From Nitriliruptorales bacterium (GTDB lineage: Bacteria > Actinomycetota > Nitriliruptoria > Euzebyales > Egibacteraceae), in contig WHTG01000005.1 of the NCBI GenBank assembly GCA_009377835.1, positions 1-44,011 of the forward strand: a stretch of 44,011 nucleotides of DNA. The letters are read 5' to 3'. This document shows, piece after piece, positions 16,622 to 23,483 of this stretch. Positions within the stretch are counted from its first letter, which is position 1; each line of letters begins with the position of its first letter. The notes under the pieces are model-generated. The model had not been told where the DNA came from. It searched no databases and saw only the letters and a program-made list of their open reading frames with translations. A program made the translations under genes and the position numbers.

Positions 16622-16762
16622 TTAGGAGACGGTCTCCTCGGTGGCAGCGCCGCCGCCCTCTGTGGCGGTCCCGCCCGTGTCTCCCGTATCACCGTCGCCG
16701 CACGCAACGGCGCCGAGGGCGAACATGGCAGCGAGCACGATGGCAAGCATCTTGTTCTTCAT
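16622..16762 (-). CDS. 46-residue putative lipoprotein
   Basis: A very short gene. The product begins MKNKMLAIVLAAMFALGAVA followed by Cys21, a clear type II signal peptide with lipobox LGAVAC. A 25-residue Gly/Thr/Asp/Glu-rich acidic tail follows (GDGDTGDTGGTATEGG...). A GGAGG ribosome site (complement at 16769-16773) stands about 6 bases before the ATG, and the gene ends at the bidirectional hairpin, which together argue that it is real. The mature part has no recognisable domain; at this size it may be a surface-anchored peptide. Function unknown. Confidence 0.65.
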   Translation of the reverse strand: MKNKMLAIVLAAMFALGAVACGDGDTGDTGGTATEGGGAATEETVS

Positions 16763-16883: not shown

Positions 16884-17975
16884 TCAGACCCGCCGAAAGC
16901 GCCGTCCCAACGACCTCGGTTCCCGCTCAACCAGCCCGACTTCGCTCAAAGCGTGCAAATCCCTCCAGGCGGTCTCGCGGCTGACCGCACACCGCTGCGC
17001 ATACTCGGCGACCGTGATGCTCTGCCCGGGATCCAGCTCCGCGACCGCCGCTGCAGCGCGGCTCGGCAGCGAGGGGGCCGGTGACGGGCGCGCGGCGCGC
17101 AGCGCCGTGGTGAGCGCCTCAACCAGCGCCTCCGTGTGCCGCTCGACCCATGGGGTGAGGTCGCCGCGCCGGCGGATCGTCGCCGCAACCTCGGTGTAGT
17201 ACCCGCCGACATCGCGTGCCCAGTGTTGTTCCGGCACCGCCACGCCGTGGGGGTCGAATCGGCGCGCACGCAGCACCAGCCGGGCTGCCGCGCGGGCCAC
17301 ACGCCCGTTGCCCGCCTCGTAGGGCTGCCACTGCAGCAGCAGTTCATGGACGACGGCGGCGACGACCGGAGCGCTGAAAGCGGTGCTTCCTTCAGTGCCG
17401 TCGCCCCGCAGCCACGCCTCCAGGTCTCCCAGCAGCTCAGGTAAGCGCGCGGGGTCCGGCGCGTTGAAGATGACCCACCCCTGCGCGCCGTCATGGATCG
17501 CCTGCTCCGTCGTGCGCAGCCGCCCCACCACGTCCGGCTCCACCAGCCCTTGGCAGATCAGGCCGTGCAGCCGAGCCAGCGTGGGCAGCGGCTGGTCGAA
17601 GAACTGCGACGCCAGCAGTGGCTCCTCGTCGTGCGTCGCCAGCAGGTTGGCGTACTCAACCGCCGCCACATCCTGGGTCGCCATCCCGTCCAGGCGCAGG
17701 GCGGCGGCCCACCCACCTGCGGAGCCCCCAGCGAGCACGGCCAGCGGGCGTTGCCATTCCCCGGCGTCCACCGCGTCGGCCGTCGACCGCTCCAGCGGGC
17801 TCCCGTCAAGTTGCGCCGACAGTCGCGCCGCCTCGCGGCGTGCCTGCGAGACCAGCGCGTCGCGCTTCCCGTGCACGTCGAGCAACCTCCCAGCGATCAG
17901 GGAGGCGTCGGTCAGGAGCGAGACGAGGTAACTGGTGTGCGCGACGCGGACGTTTATCGAGCCCGCCGGGCTCAC
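16884..17975 (-). CDS. Fic-like protein with degenerate catalytic motif and C-terminal winged helix
   Basis: A 363-residue protein. The middle shows a Fic-domain core: HELLLQW followed by QPYEAGNGRVARAAARL, aligning with the Fic motif HPFxxGNGRxxR. The catalytic His is Gln217 and the acidic residue before Gly is Ala221, while GNGR is kept, so AMP transfer by the usual mechanism should be lost. The last about 55 residues form a winged helix-turn-helix (ITVAEYAQRCAVSRETAWRD). The N-terminal part resembles other Fic proteins only weakly. The GTG at 17975 overlaps the stop of the HAD gene (GTGA), so the two are coupled. A DNA-binding or regulatory role is possible. Confidence 0.7.
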   Translation of the reverse strand: MSPAGSINVRVAHTSYLVSLLTDASLIAGRLLDVHGKRDALVSQARREAARLSAQLDGSPLERSTADAVDAGEWQRPLAVLAGGSAGGWAAALRLDGMATQDVAAVEYANLLATHDEEPLLASQFFDQPLPTLARLHGLICQGLVEPDVVGRLRTTEQAIHDGAQGWVIFNAPDPARLPELLGDLEAWLRGDGTEGSTAFSAPVVAAVVHELLLQWQPYEAGNGRVARAAARLVLRARRFDPHGVAVPEQHWARDVGGYYTEVAATIRRRGDLTPWVERHTEALVEALTTALRAARPSPAPSLPSRAAAAVAELDPGQSITVAEYAQRCAVSRETAWRDLHALSEVGLVEREPRSLGRRFRRV

Positions 17976-18778
17976 GCTCGTCGCACGCGCAGCCGCCGCG
18001 CGCGGGCGAGGTCCTGCGCCTTGCGTTCGTGGTGCACCCCGGCAGCCCAGCCGCCCGCCGCGCCACCGACCGTGAATGCCGCCGCGGCTGACAACTTGGC
18101 CACCTGCTTGGCCTGCCGGTTGAACTCCACGATCGGCCATCCCCGCCGGTGCGCGACCGACTCCATGGCCCGGTCCGGGTTCACCGCCACGGGATGCCCG
18201 ACGATCTGCATCATCGGCAGGTCGCTGGCCGAGTCCGAATACGAGTAGCAATGGGCGAGGTCGTAGCCCTTCTCTGCGGCGAGCTTGCGGATGTGCTCAG
18301 CCTTGCCTTCGCCGTAACAGAAAGGTGCCGCGAGCCTGCCGGTATATACGCCGTCGACGATCTCGCTCTCGGTACCCATCGCGCCGGCGATGCTGAGCGC
18401 CTTCGCAAGCTCGCCAACGATCTCGATCGGACTCGCGGAGATGATGTAGACGTCGCGGCCAGCTTCTTCGTGCATGTCCAACAACGCCTGGGCCTCAGGG
18501 CGGATCTTGCGCAGCAGCTCCTCGGTGACGGCCGGCGCCAGCTTGATCAACGTCTCCGCCTCAGTCCCGGCGACGCTCTCCAGGATGCGGTCGCGTACCT
18601 GTTCGGACTTCTCGTCGGACGCACCGAACAGTTTGAACATCAGGCCGTTGAAGCCGTCGGCAAGCAGCCGCGGCAGGGGCAGCAGCCCCTCGCGGTACGC
18701 GGCACGGCCGAAATAGAAGGCGCTGCTGCCGGACATCAGCGTGCGGTCGAGGTCGAAGTACGCCGCGGAATTCGTCAT
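17972..18778 (-). CDS. HAD-IB family phosphatase (SerB-like)
   Basis: A 268-residue HAD superfamily hydrolase of subfamily IB. Motif I is YFDLDRTLMSGSS with the nucleophile and acid Asp pair, motif II lies in VYIISASP, and motif III/IV is in YSYSDSASDLPMMQIVGHPV. The C-terminal 45 residues are Ala/Gly- and Arg-rich (AAAAFTVGGAAGGWAAG), perhaps a membrane-associating end. Relatives dephosphorylate phosphoserine or other small phosphates, and the SerB-like annotation covers several substrates. It is the first gene of a two-gene unit with the Fic-like gene. A good leaderless promoter stands directly upstream. Confidence 0.88.
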   Translation of the reverse strand: MTNSAAYFDLDRTLMSGSSAFYFGRAAYREGLLPLPRLLADGFNGLMFKLFGASDEKSEQVRDRILESVAGTEAETLIKLAPAVTEELLRKIRPEAQALLDMHEEAGRDVYIISASPIEIVGELAKALSIAGAMGTESEIVDGVYTGRLAAPFCYGEGKAEHIRKLAAEKGYDLAHCYSYSDSASDLPMMQIVGHPVAVNPDRAMESVAHRRGWPIVEFNRQAKQVAKLSAAAAFTVGGAAGGWAAGVHHERKAQDLARARRLRVRRA

Positions 18779-19333: not shown

Positions 19334-20167
19334 TCACGACGCCTTCTTGCGCGACCGGGGCTTGGGCTTGTCCGGCTCCTGCGCCGGCCCGCGCGTCTTC
19401 GACGCCTCGACCGAGGCTCGCAGCGCCTCCATCAGATCGACGACGCCGGTCGGCTCCCCAGCATCGTCGACGACGGTGACCTCCTGGCCCTCGACCTTCG
19501 CCCGCACCGCGTCGAGCAGCTTTTCCCGGTACGTATCGGTGTACGCCGTCGGGTCGAAGTCCTCGGTGAGGTTTTCGATCAGCGCCTCGGCCATGGCGAC
19601 TTCCTGCTTGCGCGGTTCCGGGATCTCACCGATGTCCAGATCCTCGATCGACAGCGACCGGATCTCATCGGGCCAGTACATGGTCTCCAGGACGAAGACG
19701 TCGTCCCGCAGCCGCAGCGTGGCCAGATGCTCCTTGTCGCGCAGGGTGATCTTGCACACGGCGACCGTCGATTTGTCGCGCATCGCCTGGGACAGCAGCC
19801 CGTACGCCTTGGCCCCGGCAGTCTCGGGCGCCAGGTAGTAGGAGCGCTGGAAGTAGATGGGGTCGATCTGCTCCAGCGGCACGAACTGGAGGATGTCCAC
19901 GGTGCGGCTGGACGGCGGTTTCAAGGCGTCGAGTTCGTCGCCGTCGAACACCACGTAACGGTCCGGCTCGTACTCGTAGCCCTTGACGATCTCGTCGTAC
20001 GGCACCTCCTCGCCGTCGGCCTTGGCCACGCGCTGATACCCGATGCGGCTGTGGTCGGACGCCCGCAACTGGTTGAACGAGACCGACTTCTCCTCGGTCG
20101 CGGGATACAGCCGGACCGGGATCGTCACGAGCCCGAACGACAGCGAGCCCTTCCACATGGTGCGCAT
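19334..20167 (-). CDS. ku: Ku homodimer, non-homologous end joining
   Basis: A 277-residue bacterial Ku. It begins MRTMWKGSLSFGLVTIPVRL, the hallmark start, contains HSRIGYQRVAKADGEEVPYD and IDPIYFQRSYYLAPE, and ends with a Lys/Arg-rich tail (KPKPRSRKKAS) of the type that helps DNA threading and LigD contact. It binds double-strand ends and recruits LigD, which is encoded about 0.8 kb away in the opposite direction. A GGAGG ribosome site lies before the ATG. Length is normal. Confidence 0.96.
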   Translation of the reverse strand: MRTMWKGSLSFGLVTIPVRLYPATEEKSVSFNQLRASDHSRIGYQRVAKADGEEVPYDEIVKGYEYEPDRYVVFDGDELDALKPPSSRTVDILQFVPLEQIDPIYFQRSYYLAPETAGAKAYGLLSQAMRDKSTVAVCKITLRDKEHLATLRLRDDVFVLETMYWPDEIRSLSIEDLDIGEIPEPRKQEVAMAEALIENLTEDFDPTAYTDTYREKLLDAVRAKVEGQEVTVVDDAGEPTGVVDLMEALRASVEASKTRGPAQEPDKPKPRSRKKAS

Positions 20168-20278
20168 TCGGCCTCCATTCGGCGCGGGGGAAACACGCCT
20201 GCGACGCAGGATCTACCGCCATCCTGCCGCGGTCAACCAGCGCACCGGGAGAAAAGCCGCAGAAATTTCCGTTGGGAC

Positions 20279-20326
20279 TTGATCGCACACATAGGAGGTG
20301 AGGTATACTGAGCGCATCGTACTCAG
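20279..20326 (+). promoter_or_regulatory. hsp20 promoter with HAIR-like (HspR) operator
   Basis: A near-perfect -10 box TATACT is at 20304-20309; TTGATC at 20279-20284 is a possible -35 with a long 19-base spacer. Overlapping the -10 box is CTGAGC-N7-ACTCAG (20308-20326). It has the spacing of the HspR-associated inverted repeat (TTGAGT-N7-ACTCAA) and matches 4 of 6 and 5 of 6 half-site bases. This would let HspR repress hsp20 outside heat stress. Confidence 0.5.
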
Positions 20327-20361
20327 GTTTCTCCTCTGTGGTCGAAAGGAGGCCCACACCC

Positions 20362-20823
20362 ATGGCAGTGATGCGCTGGGACCCGTGGAACGAACTCGCG
20401 CTGTTGCAGCGTGACGTGAACCAACTGCTGGGGCGGCCGGCACGCCGCTCCGATTCGCTCATCCCTCCGATGGATGTGTTCCGGACGCCTGAGGGCTTGA
20501 CAGTCCGTATGGAGCTGCCGGGCCTGCGGCCCGGGGAGGTCGACATCTCCGTCAACGACGGGATGCTGACGATTTCGGGCGAGCGCAAGCTCGACGCAGG
20601 CGTCGCGGAGGACGCATGGCTGCGCCGCGAGCGTCCCGTGGGTCGCTTCGAACGCGGCTTTGGCCTGCCCGAGGGGACCGATCCCGCCGCGGTCACCGCG
20701 GACTTCGAGGCGGGCGTGCTCGAGCTGCACATCCCGGCACCGCCGGAAAGGCGCCCGCACAAGGTGCAGATCGGCACCGGCGACGAGACCGCGAGCGAGA
20801 CGGTCGACGTCAAGGAGCAGTAG
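20362..20823 (+). CDS. Hsp20 small heat-shock protein
   Basis: A 153-residue alpha-crystallin-type chaperone that binds unfolding proteins without ATP. The N-terminal arm MRWDPWNELALLQRDVNQLL is typical. The alpha-crystallin domain spans about residues 37-130 with VRMELPGLRPGEVDISV, LTISGERK and the GRFERGFGLPEG and DFEAGVLELHIP segments. The C-terminal IxI-like contact is weak. An AAAGGAGG ribosome site precedes the ATG at 20362 by 9 bases. It stands between the divergent ku and ligD genes. Confidence 0.93.
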   Translation: MAVMRWDPWNELALLQRDVNQLLGRPARRSDSLIPPMDVFRTPEGLTVRMELPGLRPGEVDISVNDGMLTISGERKLDAGVAEDAWLRRERPVGRFERGFGLPEGTDPAAVTADFEAGVLELHIPAPPERRPHKVQIGTGDETASETVDVKEQ

Positions 20824-20927
20824 TCGCAACGATCGACGGGGGGCGGCCGAGCCGGGGCGCCCCCCGTCGTGCGTCCAGGGCCGCGGGCGCTGCCTACGAT
20901 GGAACCGCCGTCGCACACCGAGGTGCC

Positions 20928-23483
20928 CTGATCGACGCTCCCACGACCATCGACTTTCCCGAGCAACTGCCGCTGCGGGCGCAGAAGCGCGACCTGTTCG
21001 TCGATGTCGACGGCGTGCCGATCAAGGTCACGAACCTCGACAAGCTGTACTGGGAGCCGGAGGGGTACACCAAGGCCGACCTGCTGACCTACTGGTTCAA
21101 CATCGCACCATGGACGCTGCCGTACCTGGAGGGGCGACCACTCACGCTGAAGCGGATGCCCAATGGCGCCGACGCGGAGTTCTTCTACGCCAAACAGGCG
21201 CCGGGTCACACACCGTCATGGATGCACACCTCGCCCGTCACGTCACGCGACGGCAAGACCGTCGACTACCTGATCGCCACCAGCCGGGCGTCGCTGGTCT
21301 GGCTGGCCAACCTCGGCTGCATCGAGCTGCACCCGTGGCACAGCCGCGTGGACGACATCAGCCATCCGGACTACGCATTCTTCGACCTCGACCCGATGGG
21401 CGACGCGACGTTTGACATGGTGCGCGAAGTCGCCCTGCTGGTGCGCACCGTGCTCGACAGACTGGGGCTGAAGGGCTACCCCAGGACGTCGGGCGCCACG
21501 GGGATGCAGATCTACGTCCCCATCGAGCGGGTCCACACCGCCGCACAGGTGCGGGAATGGGTCGGCCGGGTCTGCCGGCTGATCAACCGCGCCGACCCCG
21601 ATCGGACCACGATGGAGTGGTCCGTCGACCGCCGTGGCTCGGAGGTGTTCCTGGATCACAACATGAACACGGAGGGCAAGAACATCGCCGTCACCTACTC
21701 CCCTCGTCCCGAGCGTCATGCGTCCGTCGCGACGCCGCTGCGCTGGGAGGAGGTCGAGCAGCCCTTCTTCCCCCGTGACTTCACCATCGCCACGATCTGG
21801 CAGCGTCTGGCGGCAGTCGGGGAACTCTTCGGCCCCGTCGTCGGCGGGGGGCAGGACCTCAGCGAGGCGATGCGCGCCCTGGGGATGGACCCGGCCGCGC
21901 GCAGCGACGAGCAGGCGCACGTCGCCGGGCCCGCGCGCCCGACGGCGTCCCCGCCGGCGCGCCGGACGGCGTCACCACCACAGGCACCGCAACCGGAATC
22001 CGCCGCCGACGTCGTGACACGGCTCGAGGAGTACGACCGCAGACGCGACTTCAACAAGACTCCGGAGCCGGCGGGTCGGCGGGATGGCGAACCGGGCCGC
22101 GACGGGCCGCGCTTCGTGCTGCAGCACCACCTCGCCACGAGGCTGCACCACGACCTGCGCCTCGAACGCGACGGCACCGCGCCGTCGTGGGCGCTGCCCA
22201 AGGGACTTCCCGACATCAAGGGTGTGCGGCATCTGGCGGTCCAGACCGAGGACCACCCGATCGAGTACATGAGTTTCAGCGGCCAGATTCCCTCCGGTGA
22301 GTACGGCGCCGGCCCTGTACGGATCTGGGACGAGGGCACATACGACCTGCTCGAGTGGACCGACCGAAAGGTGACGTTCCGCCTCAACGGGCGGCGCCAC
22401 CACGGCGAGTACCACCTGTTTCGAACGGGCCGCGACGACCCGTCGCAGTGGCTGGTGATCCGTGCCGACGAGGACGCGCTCGCGGAGGTCAGCGACCTGG
22501 TTCCGCCGCCCCCCCAGATCGCACCGATGCTCGCCACCGACGGCGGGACCGCCTTCGACGACCCGCACTGGATGTTCGAGATCAAGTGGGACGGGGTCCG
22601 CGCCATCGCCACAGTCGTGCGGCCCGGGGCCGGGGGTGACGGCACCACCACCCTGGTCAGCCGCAACGGCAACGACATCACCGCGGGCTATCCGGAGCTG
22701 CGGCCCCTGTGGGAGCGGGTGCTGGCGCGCAACGCCGTGCTCGACGGGGAGATCGTGGCGCTGGACGAACAGGGCAGGCCATCCTTTCAGCGGCTGCAGC
22801 ACCGAATGCACTCGCGGGACGCCACTGCCGTCGCGCGTGCTGTCAAACGCACCCCTGTGACCCTCGTCATCTTCGACGTCGTGGCGCTCGACGGCGATCT
22901 GATCTGTGACGAACCGCTGGCGCGGCGCCTGGAGGTCCTCGACGAGCTGCTCGTCCCCGGCGGCCCGTTCGTGCGCAGCAACGCGATCCGCGGAGACGGG
23001 ATCGCGATGTACCAGGCCGCTCAGGCGCAGGGGCTGGAAGGCTTGATCGCAAAGCGGGCCGACTCGACGTACAAGCCCGGCAGGCGCAGCCGCGACTGGC
23101 GCAAGCTGAAGGTGCGCCGCGAAGTGGAAGCCGTCATCGGTGGGTGGCTTCCCGGCGACGGAAACCGCACGAACCGACTGGGCGCGCTGCTGGTGGGGCT
23201 GTACGACGAGGGTGTGTTGCGCTACGTCGGCCGGGTCGGCACGGGATTCGACGACTCCGAACTGAAGCGCCTCGGCGCGCTGCTGGACAGACACTCGGTT
23301 GCGTCGTCGCCGTTCTCGACGGCTCCCAATCCGCAGGGGCGCTGGGTCGAGCCGATCATGGTCTGCCGCGTGGAGTACGGCGAGGTCACCGAGGACGCAA
23401 AGCTTCGCCATCCTTCGTACAAGGGAACCGTCCCGGACGCGGACCCGCGGCAGTGCCTGGTGGACGATCTGCGCCATGCTTGA
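20928..23483 (+). CDS. ligD: multifunctional ATP-dependent DNA ligase LigD (Pol-PE-Lig)
   Basis: About 851 residues with three NHEJ domains in the mycobacterial order. The primase-like polymerase (about 20-310) has the metal-binding DLDP in YAFFDLDPMGD. The 3'-phosphoesterase (about 365-540) has HHLATRLHHDLRLERDG. The ligase (about 530-851) has nucleophile Lys553 in EIKWDG, DGEIVALD and the OB-fold end. It works with Ku to fill, trim and seal double-strand breaks. The start is uncertain: no ATG, GTG or TTG occurs in frame between the hsp20 stop and the conserved RAQKRDLFVDVDG segment. I chose CTG 20928; TACGAT at 20895 could be its -10 box. Confidence 0.9.
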   Translation: MIDAPTTIDFPEQLPLRAQKRDLFVDVDGVPIKVTNLDKLYWEPEGYTKADLLTYWFNIAPWTLPYLEGRPLTLKRMPNGADAEFFYAKQAPGHTPSWMHTSPVTSRDGKTVDYLIATSRASLVWLANLGCIELHPWHSRVDDISHPDYAFFDLDPMGDATFDMVREVALLVRTVLDRLGLKGYPRTSGATGMQIYVPIERVHTAAQVREWVGRVCRLINRADPDRTTMEWSVDRRGSEVFLDHNMNTEGKNIAVTYSPRPERHASVATPLRWEEVEQPFFPRDFTIATIWQRLAAVGELFGPVVGGGQDLSEAMRALGMDPAARSDEQAHVAGPARPTASPPARRTASPPQAPQPESAADVVTRLEEYDRRRDFNKTPEPAGRRDGEPGRDGPRFVLQHHLATRLHHDLRLERDGTAPSWALPKGLPDIKGVRHLAVQTEDHPIEYMSFSGQIPSGEYGAGPVRIWDEGTYDLLEWTDRKVTFRLNGRRHHGEYHLFRTGRDDPSQWLVIRADEDALAEVSDLVPPPPQIAPMLATDGGTAFDDPHWMFEIKWDGVRAIATVVRPGAGGDGTTTLVSRNGNDITAGYPELRPLWERVLARNAVLDGEIVALDEQGRPSFQRLQHRMHSRDATAVARAVKRTPVTLVIFDVVALDGDLICDEPLARRLEVLDELLVPGGPFVRSNAIRGDGIAMYQAAQAQGLEGLIAKRADSTYKPGRRSRDWRKLKVRREVEAVIGGWLPGDGNRTNRLGALLVGLYDEGVLRYVGRVGTGFDDSELKRLGALLDRHSVASSPFSTAPNPQGRWVEPIMVCRVEYGEVTEDAKLRHPSYKGTVPDADPRQCLVDDLRHA

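What the first reader, a model, noticed from the sequence alone, without database searches (positions are those of the whole stretch)
16884..17975. Fic-like protein with Gln in place of the catalytic His
The core reads QPYEAGNGRVAR instead of HPFxxGNGRxxR. Both the His and the acidic residue are replaced while GNGR is kept, and a winged helix is attached. The gene is intact and coupled to a phosphatase gene, so the protein is probably maintained for a role other than standard AMP transfer, such as nucleotide sensing coupled to DNA binding.
Basis: partly seen in the sequence, partly recalled or inferred. Interest (0 to 1): 0.58.

Follow-up and report, generated by a model that had tools for sequence, protein, structure and literature searches.

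The report
Fic-fold protein lacking its catalytic residues
This bacterial gene makes a protein with the shape of an AMP-attaching "Fic" enzyme but without the residues that do the chemistry, and what look like counterparts of it sit beside the same phosphatase gene in many other actinobacteria, including next to a well-known regulatory RNA of mycobacteria, so it is probably a kept binding or regulatory protein rather than a broken enzyme.

Summary
Window 17975-16884 (minus) encodes a 363-aa class-II-like Fic protein with QPYEAGNGRVAR where HPFx(D/E)GNGRxxR is expected; the alignment is not shifted. It is an orthologous family, not an isolated mutant: 57 of 66 genomes of the class have a match. 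In a motif-masked tree all 68 family rows stand on one side (100*) and the 23 canonical Fics used on the other. 0 of 68 keep the metal-binding acid; 24 of 68 keep the His. Selection is purifying (dN/dS 0.06-0.34). 58 of 68 have a HAD-IB phosphatase gene beside them, against 0 of 46 canonical rows. Profile comparison, reciprocal ranking, predicted fold and locus place the actinomycete "oxidoreductase" next to Ms1 sRNA (the Rv3662c/SCO3559 locus) in the same family, although Pfam hardly sees it. Best reading: a Fic pseudoenzyme kept as a ligand-binding or scaffold partner of the HAD phosphatase pathway. "Coupled to DNA binding" is weak: the winged helix is ordinary for such Fics, poorly conserved here, and missing in actinomycetes.

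The parts
16884..17975 (-). Fic-like pseudoenzyme gene, 363 aa, GTG start
   Evidence: ORF, Pfam Fic, confident model (pLDDT 93.9) matching Fic structures up to Z 29.8
17292..17327 (-). degenerate FIC motif QPYEAGNGRVAR (residues 217-228)
17802..17819 (-). inhibitory-helix motif S-x-x-L-D-G (residues 53-58), Glu replaced by Asp
   Evidence: Asp in all 48 rows of the class that have a letter there
17487..17495 (-). HDG in the flap region (residues 161-163), His in 46 of 49 rows of the class
   Evidence: strands 159-161 and 168-171 in the model
16887..17063 (-). C-terminal winged helix (residues 305-363), poorly conserved
17972..18778 (-). HAD-IB family phosphatase gene, partner upstream; its stop overlaps the Fic start (GTGA)
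   Evidence: TIGR01490 166 bits, cut-off 98.3; linkage

Best explanation
A Fic-fold pseudoenzyme, held as one orthologous family in the window's class and probably also in mycobacteria-like and streptomycete-like genomes. Its ancestor was a class II Fic (N-terminal inhibitory helix, Fic core, winged helix). The Mg-binding acid of the motif was lost once, before the family spread; the catalytic His was then lost several times (Gln, Arg, Lys, Ala, Met). What stays is the fold and, in the window's class, the phosphate-binding Asn and two Arg plus an inhibitory-type helix with Asp for Glu. I infer that it no longer transfers AMP and works as a binding protein: its pocket holds a phosphate-bearing ligand (nucleotide or the like) without metal, and the protein regulates or scaffolds the HAD-IB phosphatase encoded with it, or its pathway. 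Shown here: predicted fold, loss pattern, conservation, selection, linkage. Inferred: loss of activity, ligand binding, action on HAD.
For: Motif by clade and one-sided tree, also with the motif masked: the position-5 acid changes once, the His state at least three times within the family. Presence in 57 of 66 class genomes, 32 of 33 good ones. dN/dS 0.063-0.339 in 10 pairs. HAD-IB neighbour in 58 of 68 family rows against 0 of 46 canonical rows, kept through a change from same-strand to convergent order. 19 of 48 same-strand pairs can have a 4-base stop/start overlap. The motif region is the best conserved part (69% against 53% for the core), so the pocket is under constraint. hhalign of actinomycete against window family E 1.4e-24; reciprocal ranking; predicted Fic fold of the Pfam-invisible mycobacteria-like protein, Z 26.5, rmsd 2.3 over 237 residues.
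Against: No activity or binding datum exists. 24 of 68 rows keep the His, and Asn plus both Arg stay in nearly all of the class, so chemistry is not excluded. BepC has Lys in place of the acid and binds AMPPNP without a divalent cation (passages of PMC8401265), so acid loss alone does not abolish nucleotide binding. 10 of 68 family rows lack a full HAD neighbour: L016, L056, L136 and L137 lie at contig ends or in short slices and L007 holds a partial HAD frame, but L059, L077, L080, L082 and L100 lack it in the DNA held. Gene adjacency is indirect evidence of joint function. The canonical control is strong only for about 25 rows with flanks up to 4 kb; the others had about 1 kb.
Confidence: 0.62

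Rival explanations
1. A rewired but still catalytic Fic protein: the pocket carries out another transfer or a hydrolysis, helped by the acid at motif position 4 and by the conserved flap His-Asp, or keeps weak AMP transfer.
For: Glu or Asp at position 4 in 47 of 49 rows of the class, flap His161 in 46 of 49, Asn 47 of 49, R1 and R2 49 of 49; 24 of 68 rows keep the motif His. PMC4454073 (section 6 read) argues that Gln-for-His Doc proteins may not be dead.
Against: Position-5 acid lost in 68 of 68; the His is swapped repeatedly for residues of different chemistry (Gln, Arg, Lys, Ala, Met); in actinomycete rows R1 is also lost and the flap columns are largely gaps. No model coordinates were available to measure distances.
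Confidence: 0.2
2. A nucleotide sensor that binds DNA through its winged helix.
For: HTH_DeoR match over cut-off in the window protein; basic C-terminal tail; pocket residues kept.
Against: The recognition helix differs widely even inside the class and actinomycete members lack the domain; no one Pfam HTH model sees more than 4 of 60 members. Canonical Fics of the same phylum carry similar C-terminal HTH matches.
Confidence: 0.1
3. A Fic-type toxin or anti-phage defence protein (SoFic type) that only looks odd.
For: PADLOC SoFic profile matches at E 2.4e-19.
Against: The profile match reflects the fold; the catalytic residues are gone. The gene is near-universal in its class and syntenic, unlike a mobile defence gene.
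Confidence: 0.03
4. A decaying relic or an assembly error.
For: Two relatives (L147, L148) have the frame broken.
Against: Open in nearly all relatives, dN/dS well below 1 in 10 of 10 pairs, motif region the most conserved part.
Confidence: 0.02

Closest known systems
Class II Fic proteins (4rgl Dde_2494; FICD; SoFic 3eqx/3zcn; M. marinum 7cb8)
   Same: Fold over residues 6-297 (Z 29.8, rmsd 2.0 over 251 residues for 4rgl) and inhibitory-helix position before the core
   Different: His and Mg-binding acid of the motif gone; inhibitory Glu is Asp; kept next to a HAD-IB gene
Protein gene flanking Ms1 sRNA in Mycobacterium and Streptomyces (Rv3662c, SCO3559 'oxidoreductase', in some genera 'Fic')
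   Same: Same family by profile, reciprocal rank, tree, predicted fold and HAD-IB neighbour; locus named in PMC9130861, PMC8539372, PMC3207917 (passages, and one section of the first)
   Different: Convergent to HAD with Ms1 between (Rfam match in 3 loci); no winged helix, R1 lost, flap reduced. I did not fetch the named proteins themselves; the link is by locus
Doc clade D2 with Gln in place of His (PMC4454073, section 6 read)
   Same: Gln for the catalytic His in the Fic/Doc family
   Different: D2 motif is Qx[F/Y]x[D/E][G/V]NKR in mostly single-domain Doc proteins, with the acid and NKR; here the acid is lost, GNGRxxR is kept and the layout is class II
Other degenerate Fic proteins: EcFicT (Leu for R1), BepC (Lys for the acid, no activity found, binds GEF-H1), Bep8 (passages of PMC5033356 and PMC8401265)
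   Same: Fic fold with altered motif and a probable non-AMP role
   Different: Each keeps or loses other residues; they belong to toxin-antitoxin or host-targeted proteins, not to a syntenic chromosomal orthologue group tied to a phosphatase

Membership tests
Fic/Fido fold family (PF02661) | Fic domain by curated profile and by fold | tested here: met
   34 bits, cut-off 24; Z up to 29.8, predicted model
Fic AMP transferase | HxFx(D/E)GNGRxxR signature motif | tested here: not met
   QPYEAGNGRVAR; position-5 acid absent in 68 of 68 family rows, His absent in 44 of 68
Fic AMP transferase | transfer of AMP to a target | not testable with these tools
   needs a biochemical assay
Class II Fic | inhibitory helix [S/T]xxxE(G/N) N-terminal to the core | tested here: inconclusive
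   position and S/T kept, Glu replaced by Asp in all 48 rows of the class with a letter there; aligned to SLAIEN of 4rgl
Class II Fic | C-terminal winged helix (common, not universal) | tested here: met
   for the window protein; absent in actinomycete members
Doc clade D2 (Gln for His) | Qx[F/Y]x[D/E][G/V]NKR, single-domain Doc | tested here: not met
   GNGRVAR, no acid at position 5, three-part protein
SoFic-type defence protein | SoFic profile | tested here: met
   E 2.4e-19
SoFic-type defence protein | catalytic Fic motif | tested here: not met
Ms1-flanking gene family | HAD-IB gene as neighbour | tested here: met
Ms1-flanking gene family | Ms1 sRNA between the two genes | tested here: not met
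   the two genes overlap; no Rfam Ms1 match in the window or in 8 class loci

The most novel reading that the evidence does not exclude
A Fic pseudoenzyme dedicated to a HAD-IB phosphatase and spread over distant parts of the actinobacterial phylum. The ancestral state is a HAD-Fic operon, as in the window; in actinomycetes the Fic gene turned round, shed its winged helix and most of its flap, and the Ms1 sRNA gene came to lie between the two. The 'oxidoreductase' beside Ms1 in Mycobacterium and Streptomyces would then be a non-catalytic Fic regulator of the phosphatase.
Probability: 0.4. Interest if true: 0.68.

Novelty: new variant of a known kind. Interest (0 to 1): 0.52.

Why it matters
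Degenerate Fic proteins are known, but those in the papers read here are toxin-antitoxin or host-targeted proteins. Here a motif-dead Fic family is a near-universal, syntenic gene of one bacterial class and, by profile and predicted fold, of mycobacteria-like and streptomycete-like genomes too, mostly tied to one phosphatase family. It would correct the "oxidoreductase" label of the gene beside Ms1 and makes a clear experiment possible in harmless model species: does this protein bind a nucleotide, and does it act on the HAD phosphatase? It also warns that profile tools would call it a SoFic defence protein.

Tried and rejected
Shifted alignment: rejected. Isolated mutation or pseudogene: rejected. 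DNA-binding regulator as the main role: weakened. Ms1-like RNA in the window or in 8 class loci: no Rfam match of that family at the thresholds used (only weak chance hits), which does not exclude a diverged RNA. A scan of genome contigs with the single sequence found nothing; with alignment A1 it gave 12 loci of Nitriliruptoria MAGs. Literature: held no paper with all terms; one search showed nothing relevant in its listing; so I found no description of this family as a pseudoenzyme, in a library that lacks most subscription journals. The UvrD query of the script was cut from the window at a length that is not a multiple of three, and its rows are not used.

Rows dropped before counts: in the tree I left out 29 second copies of loci already present; six rows that are fragments, frame-broken or not of the family (L032, L147, L148, L150, L149, L146); and L005, a same-genus relative of L004 with the motif QPFEAGNGRLAR. 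L117 (YPFEDGNGRTGR) falls on the canonical side and keeps the acid. The tree uses all 68 family rows but every second canonical row (23 of 46). Alignment A2 holds 60 rows, 10 of them actinomycete-type; L059 (MPFSSANGR) was set aside from the per-group counts, giving 23 + 26 rows of the class. One search prints 50 same-strand loci; three of them (L005, L147, L148) are not tree rows, so 47 + 11 = 58 of 68 are counted. One search takes, for 48 same-strand loci, the in-frame start nearest to the HAD stop, which favours short distances. In one search, a few of the 39 matching genomes have only a weak match (G002 at 2.4e-5) that is probably another Fic.

Full report
What was checked. The ORF lies at 16884-17975 on the minus strand with a GTG start, and reads QPYEAGNGRVAR at 17327-17292. 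Pfam gives Fic (34 bits, cut-off 24) and HTH_DeoR (24 bits, cut-off 21). The gene upstream is a HAD-IB hydrolase (TIGR01490, 166 bits, cut-off 98.3); its stop and the Fic start share GTGA at 17972-17975. A profile search of the PDB aligns the family to 4rgl and FICD through the motif without a gap. The acid that is lost is motif position 5; the Glu seen is position 4, a variable position.

Is it one protein or a family? 39 of 41 near genomes have a match (a few of them weak) and 57 of 66 genomes of the class do at 1e-8, 32 of 33 of the good ones. Named MAGs fetched with alignment A1 are Egibacteraceae, Euzebyaceae, Euzebyales and Nitriliruptorales, so the window comes from a Nitriliruptoria-like actinobacterium (inference from names). 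The closest family codes f1-f3 read QPFEAGNGR, QPFEAANGR or RPFEAGNGR (one, L059, MPFSSANGR); codes f4 and f5 read mostly HPF(D/E)AANGR, with Gln in a few.

Evolution. In a tree of 115 rows, 46 carry the canonical motif and 68 form the other side (99*); one odd row, L117 with YPFEDGNGR, sits among the canonical ones. With the motif masked and 23 canonical rows, the 68 family rows are one side with 100*. The position-5 acid changes once on that tree, the His state at least three times within the family. 0 of 68 rows keep the acid and 24 of 68 keep the His. I read this as loss of the metal site first and repeated loss of the now idle base later. The canonical rows were those that a search with the family profile brought in, so the sample is not neutral.

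Constraint. Ten pairs of relatives give dN/dS of 0.063 to 0.339. In the window's own families the motif region has 69% mean pairwise identity, the Fic core 53%, the winged helix 40%. In 49 rows of the class R1 and R2 of the motif are invariant and Asn stands in 47; the inhibitory-helix motif [S/T]xxLD(G/A) has Asp in all 48 rows with a letter there, where known Fics have Glu (known motif from PMC5033356, passages). A flap His161 stands in 46 of 49. In ten actinomycete-type rows R2 is kept in 10 of 10, but R1 is Val, Leu or Ile in 10 of 10, Asn becomes Asp in 4, and the flap columns are largely gaps. [quoted passage not shown]

Fold. The window protein's model has pLDDT 93.9 and pTM 0.92 and matches 4rgl with Z 29.8, rmsd 2.0 over 251 residues, and many FICD and SoFic entries at Z 25-27 (Foldseek also ranks these first). 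It is a class-II-type Fic by architecture.

Wider family. A profile of 14 actinomycete proteins compares with the window family at E 1.4e-24 (29% identity) and with 16 canonical Fics at 4.7e-17 (15%). Used as a query on 396 genomes of the phylum (70 with a match at 1e-10), it ranks the window-type gene ahead of the canonical Fic in each of the five class genomes that show both (G026, G037, G039, G357, G375). Pfam sees Fic in only 4 of the 14, and in neither the mycobacteria-like L087 nor the streptomycete-like L090 protein tried first. The model of L087's protein (pLDDT 82.1) matches a M. marinum Fic, 7cb8, with Z 26.5, rmsd 2.3 over 237 residues.

Neighbourhood. 58 of 68 family rows have a HAD-IB gene (47 same strand, 11 convergent); 0 of 46 canonical rows do in the DNA held, about 25 of these with flanks up to 4 kb. 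19 of 48 same-strand pairs can have a 4-base overlap of stop and start. In three convergent loci (L087, L089, L091) Rfam Ms1 lies between the two genes, and 6C RNA lies near HAD in those three and in five other convergent loci; L100, which has no HAD, has 6C as well. Ms1 flanks are, in the literature, Rv3661 and Rv3662c in M. tuberculosis (PMC3207917, passages) and SCO3558 and SCO3559 in S. coelicolor (PMC9130861, PMC8539372, passages); the second gene is annotated oxidoreductase, or Fic in some genera, and PMC9130861 treats the two words as synonyms. I did not fetch those named proteins; identity is by locus. Rv3662c rises 5.8-fold when whiB1 is under-expressed (PMC5741622, table passage), and SCO3559 is listed in a sigma-E regulon table (PMC6767563, passage), which speaks of regulation, not function. 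PMC9130861 (section 27 read) speculates on a link of the HAD gene, CicA-like, to cell size and shape.

What it most likely does. I put first a non-catalytic binding protein: the pocket keeps its phosphate-binding Asn and Arg in the window's class, the metal site is gone, and the partner is a phosphatase. It may hold a phosphorylated ligand and regulate or scaffold HAD. This last step is inference. A rewired enzyme is the main rival (BepC binds AMPPNP without metal; PMC8401265 passages). DNA binding as the output is weak: canonical relatives have similar HTH matches, no one HTH model sees more than 4 of 60 members, and actinomycete members lack the domain. A SoFic defence label reflects the fold only.

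Novelty. Gln-for-His Doc proteins and other degenerate Fics are in print (PMC4454073, PMC5033356, PMC8401265). A syntenic pseudo-Fic family tied to a HAD-IB gene and to the Ms1 locus I did not find. I call it a new variant of a known kind.

Noticed in passing
window 16622-16762 (minus): A 46-aa lipoprotein-like ORF (signal, Cys, Gly/Thr/Glu-rich tail) directly after the Fic-like gene; of nine related loci checked only L027 has something alike.
   Followed up: partly
L122 1205-1869 (contig C47 of the same genome): The genome's only other Fic/Doc match is a 125-aa Doc-type protein (HALVDGNKRLGL) with a small ORF overlapping its start that looks like a ribbon-helix-helix antitoxin (the pair reading is recalled knowledge).
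   Followed up: no
L147, L148: Two relatives carry the gene in pieces in different frames; this may be assembly error or decay.
   Followed up: no
L077, L080, L082, L100: Four actinomycete members lack the HAD neighbour within about 4 kb; L100 still has 6C RNA close by.
   Followed up: partly
L117: A Fic with YPFEDGNGRTGR, Tyr for the catalytic His, inside the canonical clade.
   Followed up: no
window 19334-23483: Ku-like and LigD-like ORFs flank a small heat-shock-like ORF close to the Fic-HAD-FxsA genes; the Ku-like gene also stands near in several relatives. The names Ku, LigD and Hsp20 are recalled from the sequence, not scanned.
   Followed up: no
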